Positions 3,640 to 13,629 of a DNA stretch of 13,629 nucleotides are shown here, in pieces. Each line of letters opens with the position of its first letter. Position 1 is the stretch's first letter. The notes under the pieces are model-generated. The model did no database searches. It was not told the origin of the DNA and saw only the letters and a program-made list of their open reading frames with translations. A program made the position numbers and the translations under genes. This DNA comes from Dunaliella salina (Eukaryota > Chlorophyta > Chlorophyceae > Chlamydomonadales > Dunaliellaceae). The stretch covers positions 218,318 through 231,946 of the forward strand of contig MU069935.1 of assembly GCA_002284615.2 (NCBI GenBank), in the 5' to 3' direction.

Positions 3640-4160
3640 TGCACATTGGATCAAGAATTTCCATCTTTGTGCATTGGGTCATCCATGTCCATCTGTGCCC
3701 ATTTGAGCATGAGGTCATAAATGTCCCTTTTGTGCATGGAATCACAAATGCATCCATCTGTGACCAGTGGCCATCTTGAGAAAAGAAAAAAAAATCTATG
3801 TAAGTCAAAGGCTACGTGCATGAAGGTAAGGTCCTTTCACGGGAGAGCTAGAGACCTCACCAGAAAGCCTCAGAACCTACACTACCTTCCATTTGTGGAC
3901 ATTGTTCACTGTCCCTCTACGTCCATTTGTGCGTCGGATCATAAATGTTTTTTTGTGAATTGGATCACAGATGTCCGTCCATCATCCATTTTCCATTCCA
4001 TGTTTATTTGTGTGCAGTGGATACCAAATTTCCATCCGTGCTTATCCTTTCATGTTAATTCATATGTTTCCATATCCGTTGCTGCAAATTTTGACATTCC
4101 GCACTGTGGAACATGAGTGTGAACTCAAAAATCATCCATCCAAGTTCATCCATGTGCAAA
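3640..4160. repeat. Degenerate satellite, about 30-bp period, split by a retrotransposon tail
   Basis: Variants of catttgtgcattggatcataaatgtccat recur across 3640-3780 and again from about 3895 to 4160, for example gtgcattgggtcatccatgt, gtgcatggaatcacaaatgc, gtgcgtcggatcataaatgt and gtgaattggatcacagatgt. The two blocks are separated by the reverse-oriented retrotransposon 3' end at 3780-3894, which therefore inserted into an existing array. ORFs here are side effects of the repeat. Confidence 0.65.
3780..3894 (-). mobile_element. Old reverse-oriented LINE 3' end with A-rich tail
   Basis: Read on the minus strand, this is a diverged copy of the last 100 or so bases of the element ending at 13629. 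Aligned landmarks are tctatgtaagtcaaaggc (tctacgcaagccaaaggc in the reverse complement of 13595-13629), acgtgcatgaag, gacctcaccag and acctacacta. It begins with a run of 14 bases that are all A except one G, the complement of a TTTTCTTTT-type tail. Homology stops near 3894, inside the 3' UTR, so this copy is severely 5'-truncated. No clear target-site duplication was found. Confidence 0.75.
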
Positions 4161-5448: not shown

Positions 5449-5943
5449 CAACAGAGCCAAGCCCCCCAGCAGCAACAGGGCGGAGATCAGCAGCAGCGGC
5501 AGCAGCAGCAGCGATGGCAGCTGCACCGGCAGCAGCAAATTCCTCCCGTGAATGACCTGGGCAGTGAGGCCAGGGTCAGCGGAGCCGCGGCAGCTTCTGC
5601 ATGCAATGCCAGTGAGTTCATGTTACAATATGCAGAGAAAAGAAGCCCTCCAGTCACTCAACCTTTCCATGAAGCTTTGATACACGAACCTATACAACGT
5701 GTTAGAGTTGATCCAACAACATTGTTCCTCTCCAAATTTGTTATTATCTTGGAAAAGAATATGATATCGCACTTGAATTATAAACAAACCGCACAGAAAC
5801 CAGTAAATGGTACAGGTTACAGGCTACGGGGAGAAGAAGGCCTCCAGTCAAAGTCACTGACTGCTCGTCTTTTCATAAGAAAAGCAGAGGTCCATGTTTT
5901 TGGGGATGAGGTTGACAAGAAAGATGCCAGTGAGTGCAAATGA
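5206..5943 (+). CDS. Polyglutamine-encoding open segment, probably an exon plus readthrough
   Basis: The frame is open from 5206 (after TGA at 5203) to TGA at 5941-5943 and contains no ATG before the repeat; the first possible start is GTG at 5236. A 3' splice site after gcatgcag (5217-5224) could begin an exon. Counting from the GTG, the first 61 residues are of mixed composition, then come 12 consecutive Gln (CAG with some CAA) and a Gln-rich stretch to about residue 103. A CCA|GTGAGTT donor-like site at 5612 would end the exon, making 5612 onward intron. The remainder has no recognisable domain and runs into the 46-bp tandem repeat, which supports an intronic nature. Function unknown; moderate support as a coding fragment because of the CAG-phased repeat. 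Confidence 0.35.
5419..5537 (+). repeat. CAG microsatellite and CAG-rich region
   Basis: Eight pure CAG units (5419-5442) are followed by CAA/CAG alternation to 5454, then interrupted CAG-rich sequence to about 5537. In the plus-strand frame it reads as glutamine; the minus strand would read leucine. Confidence 0.9.
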
Positions 5944-6209
5944 AATAGGGGATGAGGTTTACAAGAAAGATGCCGGTGAGCGCAAATGAAATAGGGGATG
6001 AGGTTTACAAGAAAGATGCNANNGAGNGCAAATGAAATNGGGGATGAGGTTTACAAGAAAGATGCCAGTGAGCGCAAATGAAATAGGGGATGAGGTCTAC
6101 AAGAAAGATGCCAGTGAGCGCAAATGAAATAAGGGATGAGGTTTACAAGAAAGATGCCAACAAGCGCAAATGAAATAGGGGATGAGGTTTACAAGAAAGA
6201 TGCCAGTGG
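5902..6209. repeat. 46-bp tandem repeat, six full copies plus a partial copy
   Basis: Units start at 5902, 5948, 5994, 6040, 6086, 6132 and 6178, an exact 46-base period. Each begins ggggatgaggtttacaagaa and carries gatgccagtgag, then gcaaatgaaata. The third unit has five N's (6020-6039). The seventh stops after gatgccagtgg. Since 46 is not a multiple of three, the array cannot encode a repeated peptide. High identity points to recent expansion. Confidence 0.95.
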
Positions 6210-6400
6210 CTACAACTTGTCTAATCCCACATTTACAGTATGCAAGCCAATATGTGTCCCCATCCTTAATTGCTGTTAGAAGAGATTTCCTCCCACGCCC
6301 ACGTCCGTTTTCTTTGCTGTTCTTAGTGTGAGCAAAGGCAGCAGAACTTGTCTGTGCGGGTGGGCTTGCACAGAGAGGGCTCGCACAGTGCATCGACTGT

Positions 6401-8190: not shown

Positions 8191-8565
8191 CCTGGCGCAG
8201 GTGGCAGTCCTGGGCCCAGCGCTGCCACATCCTCACGAGGTGGCTCATCTGGCCCCTCGCGCAGCTGGAAGAAATCCCTGCACAAGGTGGCACCGGCAGC
8301 TAGTACTGCCACAACAAGTGCTGCGCCTGCTGGGCCGGCGACAACAGCGCCTGCTGAGCCGGTAGAGACTTTGCCTACTGGGCCTGTGACAACAGAATCC
8401 ATGCCTGAGGGCGTGCCACTCCCAGCACAGCCGCTGCTGCTGAAGGTGCATGGGCTGAAACCTGGCCAGGTAGACGACCTGCGGTCCCTGGTCGAGCAGC
8501 AGGCGCGTTCCGAGTGGGGTCCGCTGGTGGTGTTCAATCCCTGTCAGGATGCATCGACGGTTTAG
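8191..8565 (+). CDS. Ala/Pro/Thr-rich open segment leading into the first 140-bp repeat
   Basis: Open from 8191 (after TGA at 8188-8190) to TAG at 8563-8565, with no early ATG. An exon could begin after gcgcag at 8199. It encodes a basic/Ser-rich lead, then a linker of repeated GPATTAPAEP-like units (about 8330-8400), then a 40-residue module with GLKPGQVDDL and PLVVFNPCQD. G+C content is higher than in the flanks and codon third positions favour G/C, which is gene-like. The same module recurs three times downstream but in other frames, so the gene is either interrupted or uses splicing that cannot be resolved here. No family is recognised. Confidence 0.4.
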   Translation, partial: PGAGGSPGPSAATSSRGGSSGPSRSWKKSLHKVAPAASTATTSAAPAGPATTAPAEPVETLPTGPVTTESMPEGVPLPAQPLLLKVHGLKPGQVDDLRSLVEQQARSEWGPLVVFNPCQDASTV

Positions 8566-9010
8566 GAAGGTTTTTGATGGTGGACGGACTGAGGTTGAAA
8601 CCAGGCCAGGTAGACGACCTGCAGTCCCTGGCGGAGCAGCAGGCGCAATCCGAGTGGGGTCAGCTCGTGGTGTTCAAGCCCTGTCGGGATATGTTACATA
8701 TTCAGGAACGTTTTTGATGGTGGATGGATTCAGGCTGAAACCAGGCCAGGTAGACGACCTGCAGTCCCTGGTGGAGCAGCAGGCGCAATCCGAGTGGGGT
8801 CAGCTGGTGGTGTTCAAGCCCTGTCGCGATATGTTCCATATTTAGGAATGTTTTTGATGGTGGATGGATTCAGGCTGAAACTAGGCCAGGTAGACAACCT
8901 GCAGTCCCTGGTGGACCAGCAGGCGCAGCCTGAGTTGGGTGTTCCGCTGGTGGTGCTCAGGCCCTGTCAGGATGTGTCGATGGTTCATGAAGATTTTTGA
9001 TGGTGGATGG
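8454..9010 (+). repeat. 140-bp tandem repeat, four copies
   Basis: The landmark ctgaaaccaggccaggtaga starts near 8455, 8595, 8735 and 8875, an exact 140-base period; the last unit is 3 bases longer. Units end with tttttgatggtggatgg. Each encodes a KPGQVDDLQSLVEQQ-type peptide, but because 140 is not a multiple of three, successive copies fall in successive frames, each closed by its own stop. Several differences between copies 1 and 2 change the amino acid (R/Q, V/A, R/Q, P/Q, N/K), so there is no sign of protein-level constraint among them. Confidence 0.95.
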
Positions 9011-10079: not shown

Positions 10080-10290
10080 CATGCTTCCACATGCGCAGAC
10101 TCTTGTTTGTTCTATTCTCCAACACCACAATTCCAGACCCCCCCCCTCCTCACAGGCACCACATACATTGCGCTTCCGGATGGCAGGGACTCCTTTCACA
10201 ATTCCCACTCAGTGACTGGAAAAAAAAAGAAAAGTCTACGCAAGCCAGAGGCCGCGTGCATTAAGTGACTGGCTTTTATTCGAGACCTAA
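10080..10290 (+). pseudogene. Relic of the LINE RNase H region, forward orientation, interrupted
   Basis: Bases 10165-10205 match the ORF segment 12280-12320 at 34 of 41 positions (acattgcRcttccRgatg then cagggac). Homology resumes beyond an insertion: actggcttttattcgagacct (10267-10287) matches 12322-12342. Upstream similarity from about 10080 is weaker and lacks the segment coding for the KAHSG/GADA motifs, so there is probably an internal deletion. The frame is not open. It is an older copy, same strand as the long element, broken by the 44-bp insertion at 10220-10263. Confidence 0.65.
10220..10263 (-). mobile_element. 44-bp reverse LINE tail insertion with 9-bp target-site duplication
   Basis: The direct repeat agtgactgg lies at 10211-10219 and 10264-10272. 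Between them is an A-rich run and then the reverse complement of the final 35 or so bases of the element ending at 13629 (aaaagtctacgcaagcca... with one mismatch). This is the layout of a target-primed retrotransposition event truncated to its last 30-odd bases plus tail. Removing it restores continuity with the ORF homologue on both sides. Confidence 0.8.
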
Positions 10291-10294
10291 AATG

Positions 10295-10632
10295 GAAAGT
10301 AAAAGTCTATGCTGGACAGCAGCCAGCATGCATTAAAGAAGGACCCTACAGTCAGCGAGTCCCACCAACTGAGCCAACCGTGAGTTACCGAGCTATTGTG
10401 GGTCCAGCAGGCTGTCAGCCATCCATCCATCCATCATGATGCGTACGCCTCGCTCTCCTGCAATCAGCCTGTCCTGTGGCCTTCCCTCCAGGATCCCCCA
10501 TTGCTCACGTTGGTGAATTGTATGGCACCAAGTGCTGCTGATTTTGTTGATGCCTTGACTGCATGATGGTGGAGTTGGGTACAGTTTTGAGGGCCTTGTC
10601 TTTCGATAAGCCAAGTTTGCAGAAAAGGTGAA
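10295..10632 (-). pseudogene. Reverse LINE copy A: C-terminal coding end, 3' UTR and tail
   Basis: On the minus strand this begins 5'-truncated near 10632. It first encodes LGLSKDKALK (compare LGLTKQKAKS in the long ORF), changes frame at least once, then reads QREQWGILEGRP and MADSLLDPQ-stop (compare QRASGRGFAGRP and MASNPPDPH-stop). The stop is at 10395-10393. About 96 bases of 3' UTR follow, ending in a perfect 7-bp terminal hairpin (10309-10315 with 10323-10329) and the tail complement ggaaagtaaaagtc. It is a decayed relative of the element, not a direct duplicate. Confidence 0.85.
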
Positions 10633-10706
10633 AGTAATACAAGTCTACGATGGACACAGCCTGCGTGCAAAGTGAAAGTAAAAAGGGAAAAGCTACGCAA
10701 GCGGGA
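10626..10706 (-). mobile_element. Two very short reverse LINE 3' ends in tandem
   Basis: The first carries tail complement gtgaaagtaatacaagtctacg followed by cctgcgtgcaaag (about 10627-10668). The second carries gtgaaagtaaaaaggg and then aaaagctacgcaagc (about 10669-10702), where homology to the element end stops after about 12 bases. Both are oriented like copy A and lie head-to-tail with it. Confidence 0.6.
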
Positions 10707-10775: not shown

Positions 10776-10845
10776 CAAGTGAAAGTAAAATTCCACGCTA
10801 GCCACAACTTGTTGAACCTGTGGGCATTAAGGAAGGACCTAGAAG
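10776..10845 (-). mobile_element. Short reverse LINE 3' end
   Basis: The tail complement aagtgaaagtaaaattcc is followed by acgctagcc and, about 25 bases on, gcattaaggaaggacc, matching the order of landmarks in copy A (gcattaaagaaggacc) and the complement of the long element's end. No coding sequence is included. Confidence 0.6.
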
Positions 10846-11065
10846 CAAAAGTAAACGTCTATGCTGGATAATGCCAGCGCGCATTGAGATAAGTTCCAAA
10901 AGGCAGTGCTGGCACTCACAGTGAGTCCTGCCAACGGGGGCTCGCTATGAGCAGCAAAGCTAGTGTAATTCCGGCGGGTTGTCAGCCATCTGTCCAGCTG
11001 TGCGCCTTGCTGTCCTGCAAACATCCCTGATAGTAGCCCCCCACCCTTACACCCCCATTGCTTTG
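10846..11065 (-). pseudogene. Reverse LINE copy B: C-terminal end, 3' UTR and tail
   Basis: Minus strand, from about 11065 down: 5'-truncated, then a frame ending MADNPPELH-stop with the stop at 10962-10960. This matches MASNPPDPH-stop of the long ORF and MADSLLDPQ-stop of copy A. The roughly 110-base 3' UTR shares gtcagccatc-flanked and gtcc-ccaac landmarks with copy A and ends in a hairpin (10863-10867 with 10874-10878) and the tail complement aaaagtaaacgtc. Its truncated 5' end abuts the forward element head-to-head. Confidence 0.85.
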
Positions 11066-13502
11066 GTTGCTCCTCAATGCAACAGTCCATTCCCACATCC
11101 GATCAGCCCTGCATAAATGGTGCATGGTCTCAGCGGAGAGGTTTTCCAGCCCTCTTGACTTTGAAAATACCTACAACACTTATTTCAGCGCAAACTACCG
11201 AGACCAGGTCTTTGGGGCGCACAAAGATGCCCTCTCTGTGCGCTACACTGGCTTCTCCTTCTGCCATCCTCCACACGATGATGAAATGATGTTTAAGCAC
11301 CTACGCCACGCAGTGCACTCCTCCCTCCATTCCACAGATCCAGTTGCCACCTTCATGCTCCTGCCCCACTGGAGAGGCTTCAGCTGTAACGTGTATATGA
11401 GCTGGCTGAGCCAATACCCAGAGACTACAAAAGTTCTTGCCAAATTCCCTGCAAGTAAAGTCCAATTCCAAGCACCACAACACTGGTTTGATACCATCAC
11501 CAATCCTACTCCACCTTCCTATCCTATGCAACTCATCGTTGTTTGGAACCCTAACGCCAGGGAAATACTAGATACCGCAAACAAAGACTGGTTTCAGTCC
11601 CTCCAGCAAGATGTAAAGCAAGTTACACCAGAAGCTTGTTGGCTACCTTTGGATTCTCCAAAGACTGTCACACCGCTGCGTACCCACCAACACCTAGCAT
11701 CAAATACTTGGAAACAGAAATTTCAATCACTCCCCCCTGACACCCATAGCTGCTCACACAAGTGCCCTCAGGAAAGGGCAGAATTCATCCCTGCCAACTT
11801 CAAAAAGATATTCACACCTACAGTCAAGGACTGGAGGGAAATCACCTACACTGATGGCAGTGTGATTAAACACAAAGATGACGACTCCCCACCCCTTCCC
11901 GGTTCAGGTGTTTACAAACCAGGAAGTGACACTGCTGCACCCTCCCAACACTTGCAACTGCACATAAAACCCAATGGCCATGGACCGACCAATACCATCA
12001 CCAGAGCAGAACTTGTGGGTATCCTTGTGGCACTCCAACACAAGCAAACTGAAATTGCCACTGATAGTGCATCATGCCTTTTTCAGATTTTTAATCAAAC
12101 CCTTAACCCGATGCGCATGAGGTATCACCTACATGCAGAGCTCATTCATGCAATATCAACCATATTAGAGCACTCCCCTCACCCTATCCATTTTTACAAA
12201 GTCAAAGCCCACTCTGGCATCATAGGAAATGAAGGGGCTGACGCTTGCGCTCGCACCGCAGCCCTCTCTCACGCCATAGACATTGCACTTCCAGATGCCA
12301 GGGACCCTTTCCACAATTTCTATTGGCTTTCATTGAANACCTCTTCCACACAAAATGATGGCATGCACCGCTACCATGCGCTTCCGATGCACTATCTCAC
12401 CAACCTGAGCGACAAACTTAAAACACACATGCACAAGAAACACAAGCTTGGCTCTGCTGACACCTCTGGATACCACTACCAGAGATGGCAGAAGCTTAAC
12501 GATGCCACACCACCCACCGCCAATGCCAACACTGAAGTTTACAACCCAGCCCCTCAACTTGCAAACAGGGAGATCAGCAACTCCTTCTGGAAAAGCCCAA
12601 AGATAACCCTTAAACAGCAAATAAATCTTATGAAGTATCGAACGGATACAATGTACACACAGAGTCATGCCTCCAACTTCAATTTTTCCAGTTCTGTTAG
12701 ATGCCCACTCTGTGCAAATACGGACAGCATCAATCACGTTCTGCTTAGGTGTACCAACCCAACAATGAGTGGGATGCACACCAACAGACACCATGCGGCC
12801 CTTAGTCTCTGTGTAGAAGCCCTGAGTAGTCAGTTTAGTAAAGGCTGGTATGGCTCATCCCTCATTAGCATGGATGGCTGCAATCATGACAGCCTTCTGG
12901 ATCAAGGCATACAAATCCCTGAAACCACCTCTCAAACTATTCCAGATTGGGTTTTCCCAAATGACATTGCCTCACCTGCTCGGCACCAAAGCCGCCCTGA
13001 TGCTCTCTTTGTGCGCCCCATCCCAGGCAGACAAGCCCACCTTGATCCTACCGAGATCCCCCCAAATGATAGAGATATTCACCTTGTTGAACTTAAATTC
13101 TGCCCGGACACAAATCCCTTCATCACTCTGGAACGTGCACGGACTCAACATTCCCACACCATAACTAGACTTAAAACACGCAGCTTAAGAAACCCAAACA
13201 GGAACAACAAAGTGACTTTGCAGACCATCTTAATTGGTATGGGTGGCACAATTTACAATGAGCTAATAATTTCACCTCTCGTAAATCTGGGTCTAACCAA
13301 ACAGAAAGCCAAATCACTAGCATCCAAGCTCAGGGACCATGCCATCCAAAGATTATCCACCATCATTAACACTAGACATGCACTTTGCTTACAGAGGGCA
13401 TCTGGGAGGGGGTTTGCTGGGCGCCCGGCGGCGGCTGAGGATGAAAGAAGGAGAGTCCGAGCGCTCAGGGGCATGGCTAGCAATCCTCCAGATCCCCATT
13501 AG
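11058..13502 (+). CDS. 5'-truncated LINE polyprotein: PCIF1-like domain, RNase H, CCHC, restriction-like endonuclease
   Basis: The frame is open from 11037 (TAG at 11034) to TAG at 13500-13502; numbering here takes TTG 11058 as residue 1. The first ATG (11124, residue 23) lies inside a conserved domain, so the true start is missing. Residues about 14-170 resemble the catalytic core of PCIF1 (cap m6Am methyltransferase): ALHK, VSAERFSSPLD, VFG, then HPPHDDEMM (H70-H73, at the place of NPPF) and LLPHWRG. Residues about 260-400 are RNase H with D266, E318, D336, H385 and D395 all present. C549-C552-H560-C565 form CX2CX7HX4C. RPDALF (D648) and VELK (E678, K680) form a PD-(D/E)XK nuclease as in R2-like elements. 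No reverse transcriptase is present; it would be expected upstream in a full element. The last 35 residues are Arg/Ala-rich. One N (12338) leaves residue 427 unknown. The domain calls are firm except the PCIF1 call, which rests on motif order. Confidence 0.85.
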   Translation: MLWLLLNATVHSHIRSALHKWCMVSAERFSSPLDFENTYNTYFSANYRDQVFGAHKDALSVRYTGFSFCHPPHDDEMMFKHLRHAVHSSLHSTDPVATFMLLPHWRGFSCNVYMSWLSQYPETTKVLAKFPASKVQFQAPQHWFDTITNPTPPSYPMQLIVVWNPNAREILDTANKDWFQSLQQDVKQVTPEACWLPLDSPKTVTPLRTHQHLASNTWKQKFQSLPPDTHSCSHKCPQERAEFIPANFKKIFTPTVKDWREITYTDGSVIKHKDDDSPPLPGSGVYKPGSDTAAPSQHLQLHIKPNGHGPTNTITRAELVGILVALQHKQTEIATDSASCLFQIFNQTLNPMRMRYHLHAELIHAISTILEHSPHPIHFYKVKAHSGIIGNEGADACARTAALSHAIDIALPDARDPFHNFYWLSLXTSSTQNDGMHRYHALPMHYLTNLSDKLKTHMHKKHKLGSADTSGYHYQRWQKLNDATPPTANANTEVYNPAPQLANREISNSFWKSPKITLKQQINLMKYRTDTMYTQSHASNFNFSSSVRCPLCANTDSINHVLLRCTNPTMSGMHTNRHHAALSLCVEALSSQFSKGWYGSSLISMDGCNHDSLLDQGIQIPETTSQTIPDWVFPNDIASPARHQSRPDALFVRPIPGRQAHLDPTEIPPNDRDIHLVELKFCPDTNPFITLERARTQHSHTITRLKTRSLRNPNRNNKVTLQTILIGMGGTIYNELIISPLVNLGLTKQKAKSLASKLRDHAIQRLSTIINTRHALCLQRASGRGFAGRPAAAEDERRRVRALRGMASNPPDPH

Positions 13503-13551
13503 TTCTGTCTCTTGCTCTCTTCTAGGCTAATTTTGTCTAGTTTAGGTGGAG

Positions 13552-13568
13552 GGCCTCCTGGTGAGGCC
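13552..13568 (+). promoter_or_regulatory. 3' UTR hairpin, GGCCTC-CTGGT-GAGGCC
   Basis: Perfect 6-bp stem with 5-base loop. In the old copy at 3780-3894 the same place reads GGCTTT-CTGGT-GAGGTC (sense), in which all six pairs remain possible if G-U is allowed. The loop is unchanged. Possible recognition structure for the element's reverse transcriptase. Confidence 0.5.
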
Positions 13569-13601
13569 TCTAACTTTTGTTTGGGGTTCTTCCCTTAATG
13601 C

Positions 13602-13621
13602 ACGCGGCCTTTGGCTTGCGT
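13602..13621 (+). promoter_or_regulatory. Terminal stem-loop next to the tail
   Basis: ACGC (13602-13605) pairs with GCGT (13618-13621) and GCC (13607-13609) with GGC (13613-13615). Copy A forms ATGCTGG/CCAGCAT and copy B GCTGG/CCAGC at the same place, with a C-G to T-A compensatory change in copy A. LINEs often need such a 3' structure for target-primed reverse transcription. Confidence 0.6.
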
Positions 13622-13629
13622 AGACTTTT

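What the first reader, a model, noticed from the sequence alone, without database searches (positions are those of the whole stretch)
11058..11570. PCIF1-like methyltransferase domain fused to a LINE polyprotein
Ahead of RNase H, zinc motif and endonuclease, the ORF carries an ordered series of motifs like the PCIF1 catalytic core: ALH..., VSxExFxSPLD, a YFG/VFG turn, xPPx followed by an acidic helix start, and a LLPxWR strand. PCIF1 is known as the writer of m6Am next to the mRNA cap. A retroelement carrying such a module could modify its own RNA's 5' end, or use the fold for RNA binding. I do not know whether this fusion has been described.
Basis: partly seen in the sequence, partly recalled or inferred. 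Interest (0 to 1): 0.9.

Follow-up and report, generated by a model that had tools for sequence, protein, structure and literature searches.

The report
Retrotransposon carrying an RNA-cap methyltransferase fold
A jumping gene in the genome of a green alga (probably Dunaliella) carries, inside its copying machinery, a domain with the fold of the human enzyme that methylates the first letter of messenger RNAs; related jumping genes elsewhere keep this domain, although its active site is altered in this alga.

The parts
11037..13502 (+). 821-aa stop-to-stop ORF: C-terminal part of a LINE polyprotein; its first 17 codons or so are flanking DNA
11086..11090 (+). 5' truncation point of this copy
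   Evidence: of the 55 other matches in the genome none begins before query 54 = window 11090; a local blastn run on fetched loci extends some to query 50 = 11086; junction alignment
11090..11630 (+). PCIF1/CAPAM-type methyltransferase core
11145..11159 (+). SSPLD, equivalent of ASPLN in PCIF1
11208..11219 (+). VFGA, equivalent of YFGS in PCIF1
11265..11276 (+). HPPH at the place of the catalytic NPPF motif
11358..11375 (+). LLPHWR strand, equivalent of FIPEWR in PCIF1
11841..12263 (+). RNase H domain
   Evidence: PF00075 E 3.2e-10
12567..12755 (+). zinc motif (CPLC...H...C)
   Evidence: zf-RVT E 5.8e-5, below the curated cut-off
12980..13370 (+). restriction-like (PD...ELK) endonuclease, approximate limits
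13503..13629 (+). 3' UTR, cut by the contig end; fetched copies continue past this point, mostly into TTTTC repeats and then unrelated flanks

Best explanation
The window ends in a 5'-truncated copy of a Dualen/RandI-type LINE of a green alga, probably Dunaliella. A PCIF1/CAPAM-type adenine-N6 methyltransferase core is a standing part of the polyprotein of this LINE family, between RT (with, in a number of members, a PHD finger) and RNase H (shown by sequence and structure comparison). In members that keep the motif NPEY the domain probably methylates adenine at N6 in cis, on the element's own RNA or on the newly made DNA (inferred). In the lineage of this genome the motif has become HPPH; the protein was kept under constraint and the fold probably serves as a nucleic-acid-binding module of the retrotransposition complex (inferred).
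For: Identity. Fusion in single open frames: P0090, P0091, P0095, P0103 and P0106 each have RT, PCIF1 and RNase H in this order, three of these five with a PHD finger between RT and PCIF1; 9 of 92 ORFs have a [YF][AV]DD motif upstream in frame and 80 of 92 have YTDGS downstream. Element nature: 35 other near-full copies at 91-96% identity, variable 5' ends, a common 3' end in the 19 fetched copies. Dualen layout: Josephin E 1.3e-8 and weak APE halves in L029, RVT_1 in L012, R2-like C-terminus in P0016. Constraint: mean pairwise identity among 14 distant relatives is 36% over PCIF1, 41% over RNase H, 30% over the endonuclease, 19% over the PCIF1-RNase H linker; dN/dS over PCIF1 is 0.26-0.41 in six diverged copies of this genome. 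Motif: NPEY in 58 of 93 rows; the window sits in a supported 16-row set without NPEY.
Against: No activity is shown for any member. NPEY departs from NPPF at the third and fourth places, so even the main lineage could be inactive or differ in substrate. Within this genome the dN/dS of the PCIF1 part (0.26-0.41) hardly differs from that of the linker (0.31-0.47), so it shows constraint on the protein, not on this domain in particular; it carries no confidence limits. The APE matches are below Pfam cut-offs. The RT was not placed on a tree with known Dualen elements. HP-type motifs need at least three changes on the tree, and its root is not fixed. Cellular PCIF1 genes of this genome could not be searched.
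Confidence: 0.6

Rival explanations
1. The domain methylates the cap-adjacent adenosine of the element's own mRNA (m6Am), as PCIF1 does, and so tunes stability or translation of the element RNA.
For: Among solved structures the PCIF1 entries match far better than other methyltransferases; the FASPLN-like and N-P-x-[YF] motifs are kept in many relatives.
Against: PCIF1's helical domain, which reads the m7G cap (PMC10544176, passages), was not found: the profile of 14 relatives, which includes the upstream region, matches only residues 303-505 of 6irv, the methyltransferase part. No WW domain was listed in five long ORFs. Motif HPPH in the window.
Confidence: 0.25
2. The domain is a DNA adenine methyltransferase that marks the cDNA or the insertion site, targeted by the neighbouring PHD finger to active chromatin.
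For: A PHD finger precedes it in a number of members; DIRS elements carry Dam-like adenine methyltransferases next to RT and RNase H (PMC5890265 and PMC3266345, passages); one relative, P0122, has an insignificant Dam match over the same stretch (E 0.1).
Confidence: 0.25
3. The domain is a passenger with no role in the element.
For: The catalytic motif is changed in several lineages; within this genome dN/dS of the domain is like that of the linker.
Against: Over long distances the domain is far better conserved than the linker (36% against 19%) and close to RNase H (41%).
Confidence: 0.08
4. The PCIF1-like stretch is a chance junction of LINE and host DNA, or an annotation artefact.
For: The window copy is truncated just inside the domain, and about 17 codons upstream are host DNA.
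Against: 35 other genomic copies with the same region; 17 of the 18 other fetched copies share DNA upstream of it with L012; distant relatives with the same order in one frame.
Confidence: 0.01

Closest known systems
Dualen/RandI group of non-LTR retrotransposons (Kojima and Fujiwara 2005, recalled, not read; described in passages of PMC4640811 and PMC3636483)
   Same: RT, RNase H, a PD-(D/E)XK-type endonuclease and APE-like halves in one element; an upstream Josephin (cysteine protease) match. That published Dualen has a cysteine protease is recalled.
   Different: A PCIF1-type methyltransferase core, in a number of members with a PHD finger, between RT and RNase H; I do not know whether the published Dualen elements have it too.
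PCIF1/CAPAM, the cap-adjacent m6Am methyltransferase
   Same: Methyltransferase-domain fold and the order SPL, FG, motif IV, PxWR.
   Different: Motif IV NPEY or HPPH instead of NPPF; no WW domain listed; helical domain not detected by profile; part of a retroelement polyprotein.
DIRS1-like retrotransposons with a methyltransferase domain (Dam-like)
   Same: A retroelement whose pol region carries an adenine methyltransferase beside RT and RNase H (PMC3266345 and PMC5890265, passages).
   Different: Dam-like rather than PCIF1-type; tyrosine-recombinase elements, not LINEs.
Retrotransposons with captured cytosine DNMTs in dinoflagellates and charophytes
   Same: Capture of a methyltransferase by retroelements of algae (PMC5890265, start of abstract and passages).
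   Different: C5-cytosine enzymes.

Membership tests
PCIF1/CAPAM methyltransferase | PCIF1-type methyltransferase-domain fold and sequence profile | tested here: met
PCIF1/CAPAM methyltransferase | Catalytic NPPF motif | tested here: not met
   HPPH in the window and in 17 of 25 aligned matches from fetched loci; among 93 family rows NPEY 58, NPPF none
PCIF1/CAPAM methyltransferase | Helical domain that reads the m7G cap | tested here: inconclusive
   The A1 profile matches only residues 303-505 of 6irv; the upstream region was not modelled
PCIF1/CAPAM methyltransferase | N-terminal WW domain | tested here: not met
   No WW family listed at E <= 0.1 in P0090, P0091, P0095, P0103, P0106, whose frames run about 900-1330 aa upstream of the domain but may be incomplete at the N-terminus
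PCIF1/CAPAM methyltransferase | m6Am-forming activity | not testable with these tools
   No assay
Dualen/RandI LINE | Reverse transcriptase | tested here: met
   RVT_1 E 2.5e-5 (below cut-off) and 1.2e-9 in two frames of L012; down to E 1.4e-26 in relatives
Dualen/RandI LINE | RNase H | tested here: met
   PF00075 E 3.2e-10
Dualen/RandI LINE | Restriction-like endonuclease | tested here: met
Dualen/RandI LINE | APE endonuclease | tested here: inconclusive
   Exo_endo_phos E 0.0076 and Exo_endo_phos_2 E 0.0017 in two neighbouring frames of L029, both below cut-off
Dualen/RandI LINE | Cysteine protease (recalled feature) | tested here: inconclusive
   Josephin E 1.3e-8, above cut-off, in one copy (L029); the kind of protease in published Dualen was not checked
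Dualen/RandI LINE | RT grouping with known Dualen elements | not tested
   No reference Dualen sequence was at hand

The most novel reading that the evidence does not exclude
A widespread group of LINEs captured a PCIF1-type adenine methyltransferase long ago and uses it, together with a PHD finger, to write N6-methyladenine on its own RNA or on newly inserted DNA. It would be a retroelement that brings its own epitranscriptomic or epigenetic writer, with secondary loss of catalysis in the Dunaliella/Haematococcus lineage.
Probability: 0.45. Interest if true: 0.9.

Novelty: new variant of a known kind. Interest (0 to 1): 0.74.

Why it matters
PCIF1 is the known writer of the cap mark m6Am (the title of PMC10544176 calls it the only one; PMC10281464, start of abstract, also lists METTL4). 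A fast-evolving family of PCIF1-type domains inside selfish elements would show how such an enzyme can be re-used, would give natural active-site variants (NPEY, HPPH), and would make it testable whether retroelements mark their own RNA or DNA with methyl groups. It would also extend methyltransferases found in retrotransposons (Dam-like in DIRS, cytosine DNMTs in algal elements) to a PCIF1-type enzyme in LINEs.

Tried and rejected
Chance junction with host DNA: rejected.

DNA transposon suggested by the 39-nt inverted repeat 10230-10268 / 13591-13629: rejected. The right arm is the 3' tail of the LINE, found at the 3' end of each of the 19 fetched copies; the left arm lies outside the element, before 11086.

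Viral or prokaryotic carriers: scans of viral contigs and genome contigs with alignment A4 matched 34 and 36 stretches by pattern, none confirmed by tblastn. This does not exclude distant relatives.

Cellular PCIF1 proteins for a tree: the third protein search listed 47 proteins among 71 candidates; all 47 carry PF12237 in their precomputed domains and no source name says PCIF1. I did not sort cellular from retroelement proteins beyond that. The tree therefore has one PCIF1 row, a 99-residue fragment on a long branch, whose place is unsure.

Cellular PCIF1 in the window's genome: the PF12237 search was sent 14 times and never answered.

Domain-specific selection within this genome: dN/dS did not set PCIF1 apart from the linker.

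Literature: ten searches. Sixteen papers hold both PCIF1 and retrotransposon; by title and start of abstract none is about such a fusion, and I opened none of the 16. One search listed 10 of 54 papers, so a paper with both Dualen and PCIF1 is not excluded by it. Iyer et al. 2016 (BioEssays, adenine methylation in eukaryotes; id and DOI recalled) is not held, nor is Franco et al. 2023 on Drosophila Pcif1. I recall that Iyer et al. treat PCIF1-type enzymes and cannot exclude that they report this fusion. Kojima and Fujiwara 2005 was not looked up.

Full report
What is in the window. The window is bases 218318-231946 of contig C500 of its genome, and ends where the contig ends. The ORF at 11037-13502 has no stop for 821 codons. 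Pfam finds PCIF1_WW (PF12237, E 1.9e-10, above its cut-off), RNase_H (E 3.2e-10) and a weak zf-RVT (E 5.8e-5) in this order. The Pfam name is misleading: PMC7641849 (passage) states that this family is not a WW domain but a CAPAM-like methyltransferase. phmmer against PDB sequences gives human PCIF1 at E 6e-4 and zebrafish PCIF1 at E 0.08.

It belongs to a LINE. A DNA search of the genome lists 56 matches, a lower bound because 40 of 3940 candidates were scored; besides the window copy, 35 span the query from position 54-64 to 2518 or beyond at 91-96% identity. None of the other 55 begins before query 54, so the window copy is cut off at about 11090 and what lies upstream is flanking DNA (11086). 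I fetched 19 of the 35. With L012 as reference, 17 of the other 18 share DNA upstream of this point with it, for about 100 bp to over 4 kb, not always without breaks; L013 shares none, being truncated at nearly the same place as the window copy. Each of the 19 ends in the same 3' sequence, mostly followed by TTTTC repeats and then unrelated DNA. Variable 5' truncation with a common 3' end is what target-primed reverse transcription leaves (established knowledge).

Layout of the whole element. Upstream in L012 are two frames with RVT_1 matches (E 2.5e-5, below cut-off, and 1.2e-9). Further upstream in the C62 copy (L029) are a Josephin match (E 1.3e-8) and, in two frames, parts of an APE-like endonuclease (E 0.0076 and 0.0017, both below cut-off). 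Dualen/RandI LINEs are described as carrying both an APE and a PD-(D/E)XK endonuclease (PMC4640811, PMC3636483, passages); that they also carry a cysteine protease is recalled. The longer copies in this genome have broken frames, but relatives from other sources have long open ones: P0090 (2095 aa), P0091 (2042), P0095 (2109), P0103 (2045) and P0106 (1486) all read RT - PCIF1 - RNase H, with a PHD finger before PCIF1 in three of the five.

Distribution. The first protein search returned 88 proteins, of which 57 carry the PCIF1-like domain by a family HMM; I did not check one by one why the other 31 lack it. After three searches it is 105 of 137. The named source among the carriers is Haematococcus lacustris (for example P0028, P0031, P0066), and one is labelled Pelagomonas calceolata; the three named D. 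salina proteins are not among the carriers. Scans of viral contigs and of prokaryote genomes found no confirmed relative.

Is the domain kept? Among 14 distant relatives (alignment A1) mean pairwise identity is 36% over PCIF1, 41% over RNase H, 42% over the zinc part, 30% over the endonuclease, but 19% over the linker between PCIF1 and RNase H and 22% between PHD and PCIF1. Within this genome, between the window copy and six diverged copies (77.5-89.2% identity), dN/dS over the PCIF1 part is 0.26-0.41; in the diverged copies where enough codons were aligned it is 0.09-0.32 for RNase H, 0.29-0.50 for the zinc/endonuclease part, 0.31-0.47 for the linker and 0.36-0.70 for the stretch between RNase H and zinc. 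So in this genome the protein was under constraint, but PCIF1 does not stand out from the linker; there are no confidence limits. Closer copies (93-96%) scatter from 0.33 to 0.78 over PCIF1.

Is it active? Human PCIF1 uses NPPF (N553-F556), and forms changed at N and F are the usual inactive mutants (PMC10544176, passages). In 93 rows that span the motif (92 proteins and the window), 58 read NPEY, 6 HPPH (the window one of them), the rest are scattered, and none reads NPPF; 59 of 93 fit [NDS]P.[YFW]. Of 25 aligned matches from fetched loci of this genome, 17 read HPPH. An NHW-x-x-P-like motif ahead of the domain was found in 36 of 62 rows by pattern. In alignment A4, 16 proteins that I picked mainly for the NPEY motif, ERFASPLNF and the N, E, Y and E of NPEYE are invariant; for the latter this is partly built in by the choice, and two rows end before RNase H. 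On a tree of 94 rows the window groups with P0002 (HPPY) and P0004 (HPIY), inside a supported set of 16 rows (99/97) without NPEY that also holds Haematococcus rows; HP-type motifs also occur elsewhere on the tree (at least three changes forced by supported branches), and NPEY rows occur in most other larger sets. I take NPEY as older within the family and the HPPH of this lineage as derived; the root is not fixed, and several long rows are of unsure place.

How it most likely works. Shown: a PCIF1-type fold is a regular part of this LINE polyprotein. Inferred: since the motifs around cofactor and target base are kept in much of the family, these members probably transfer a methyl group to adenine N6, and since the domain is fused to RT and RNase H the substrate is probably the element's own RNA or new DNA. 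Cap-specific action is uncertain, because the helical domain that binds the cap in PCIF1 was not detected by profile. DNA action is uncertain, because only a PHD finger, the DIRS precedent and an insignificant Dam match speak for it. For the window's lineage, HPPH speaks for loss of catalysis with retention of a binding role. I put about 0.65 on activity in the NPEY lineage and about 0.7 on loss of activity in this genome's elements.

Novelty. Dam-like adenine methyltransferases in DIRS elements and cytosine methyltransferases in algal retrotransposons are known (PMC3266345, PMC5890265, passages). Dualen elements are known. I therefore call it a new variant of a known kind.

Noticed in passing
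window 10296-10623: A repeat of about 330 bp with 39 longer matches elsewhere in the genome at 68-73% identity, a lower bound; possibly a SINE-like element.
   Followed up: partly
window 10222-10268 (similar: 10631-10669, 10845-10883, 3782-3820): Reverse-complement copy of the LINE's 3' tail with its AAAAG run, outside the LINE, and looser repeats of it; three short matches of 91-98% identity lie beside copies of the 330-bp repeat. Short elements may share the LINE tail for mobilisation.
   Followed up: partly
P0137 (527 aa, unnamed source): The strongest PF12237 match among the proteins scanned (E 6.1e-19), motif NPEY, no RT or RNase H listed; its C-terminal half holds a stretch that by eye resembles motif I of cytosine DNA methyltransferases, without Pfam support.
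   Followed up: partly
P0009, P0039, P0045, P0048: Proteins matched by this LINE carry names of bacterial MAGs (Halalkalibacterium, Paracoccaceae, Hydrogenophaga), probably eukaryotic contamination of bins.
   Followed up: no
P0021: Labelled Pelagomonas calceolata but contains stretches very similar to the Dunaliella element; contamination or close transfer.
   Followed up: no
window 5856-6269 and 8421-8980: Tandem arrays with a period of 46 bp and of 140 bp.
   Followed up: no
L029:1676-2551 (-): Josephin match in the 5' part of the element (E 1.3e-8); worth comparing with the cysteine protease recalled for published Dualen elements.
   Followed up: partly
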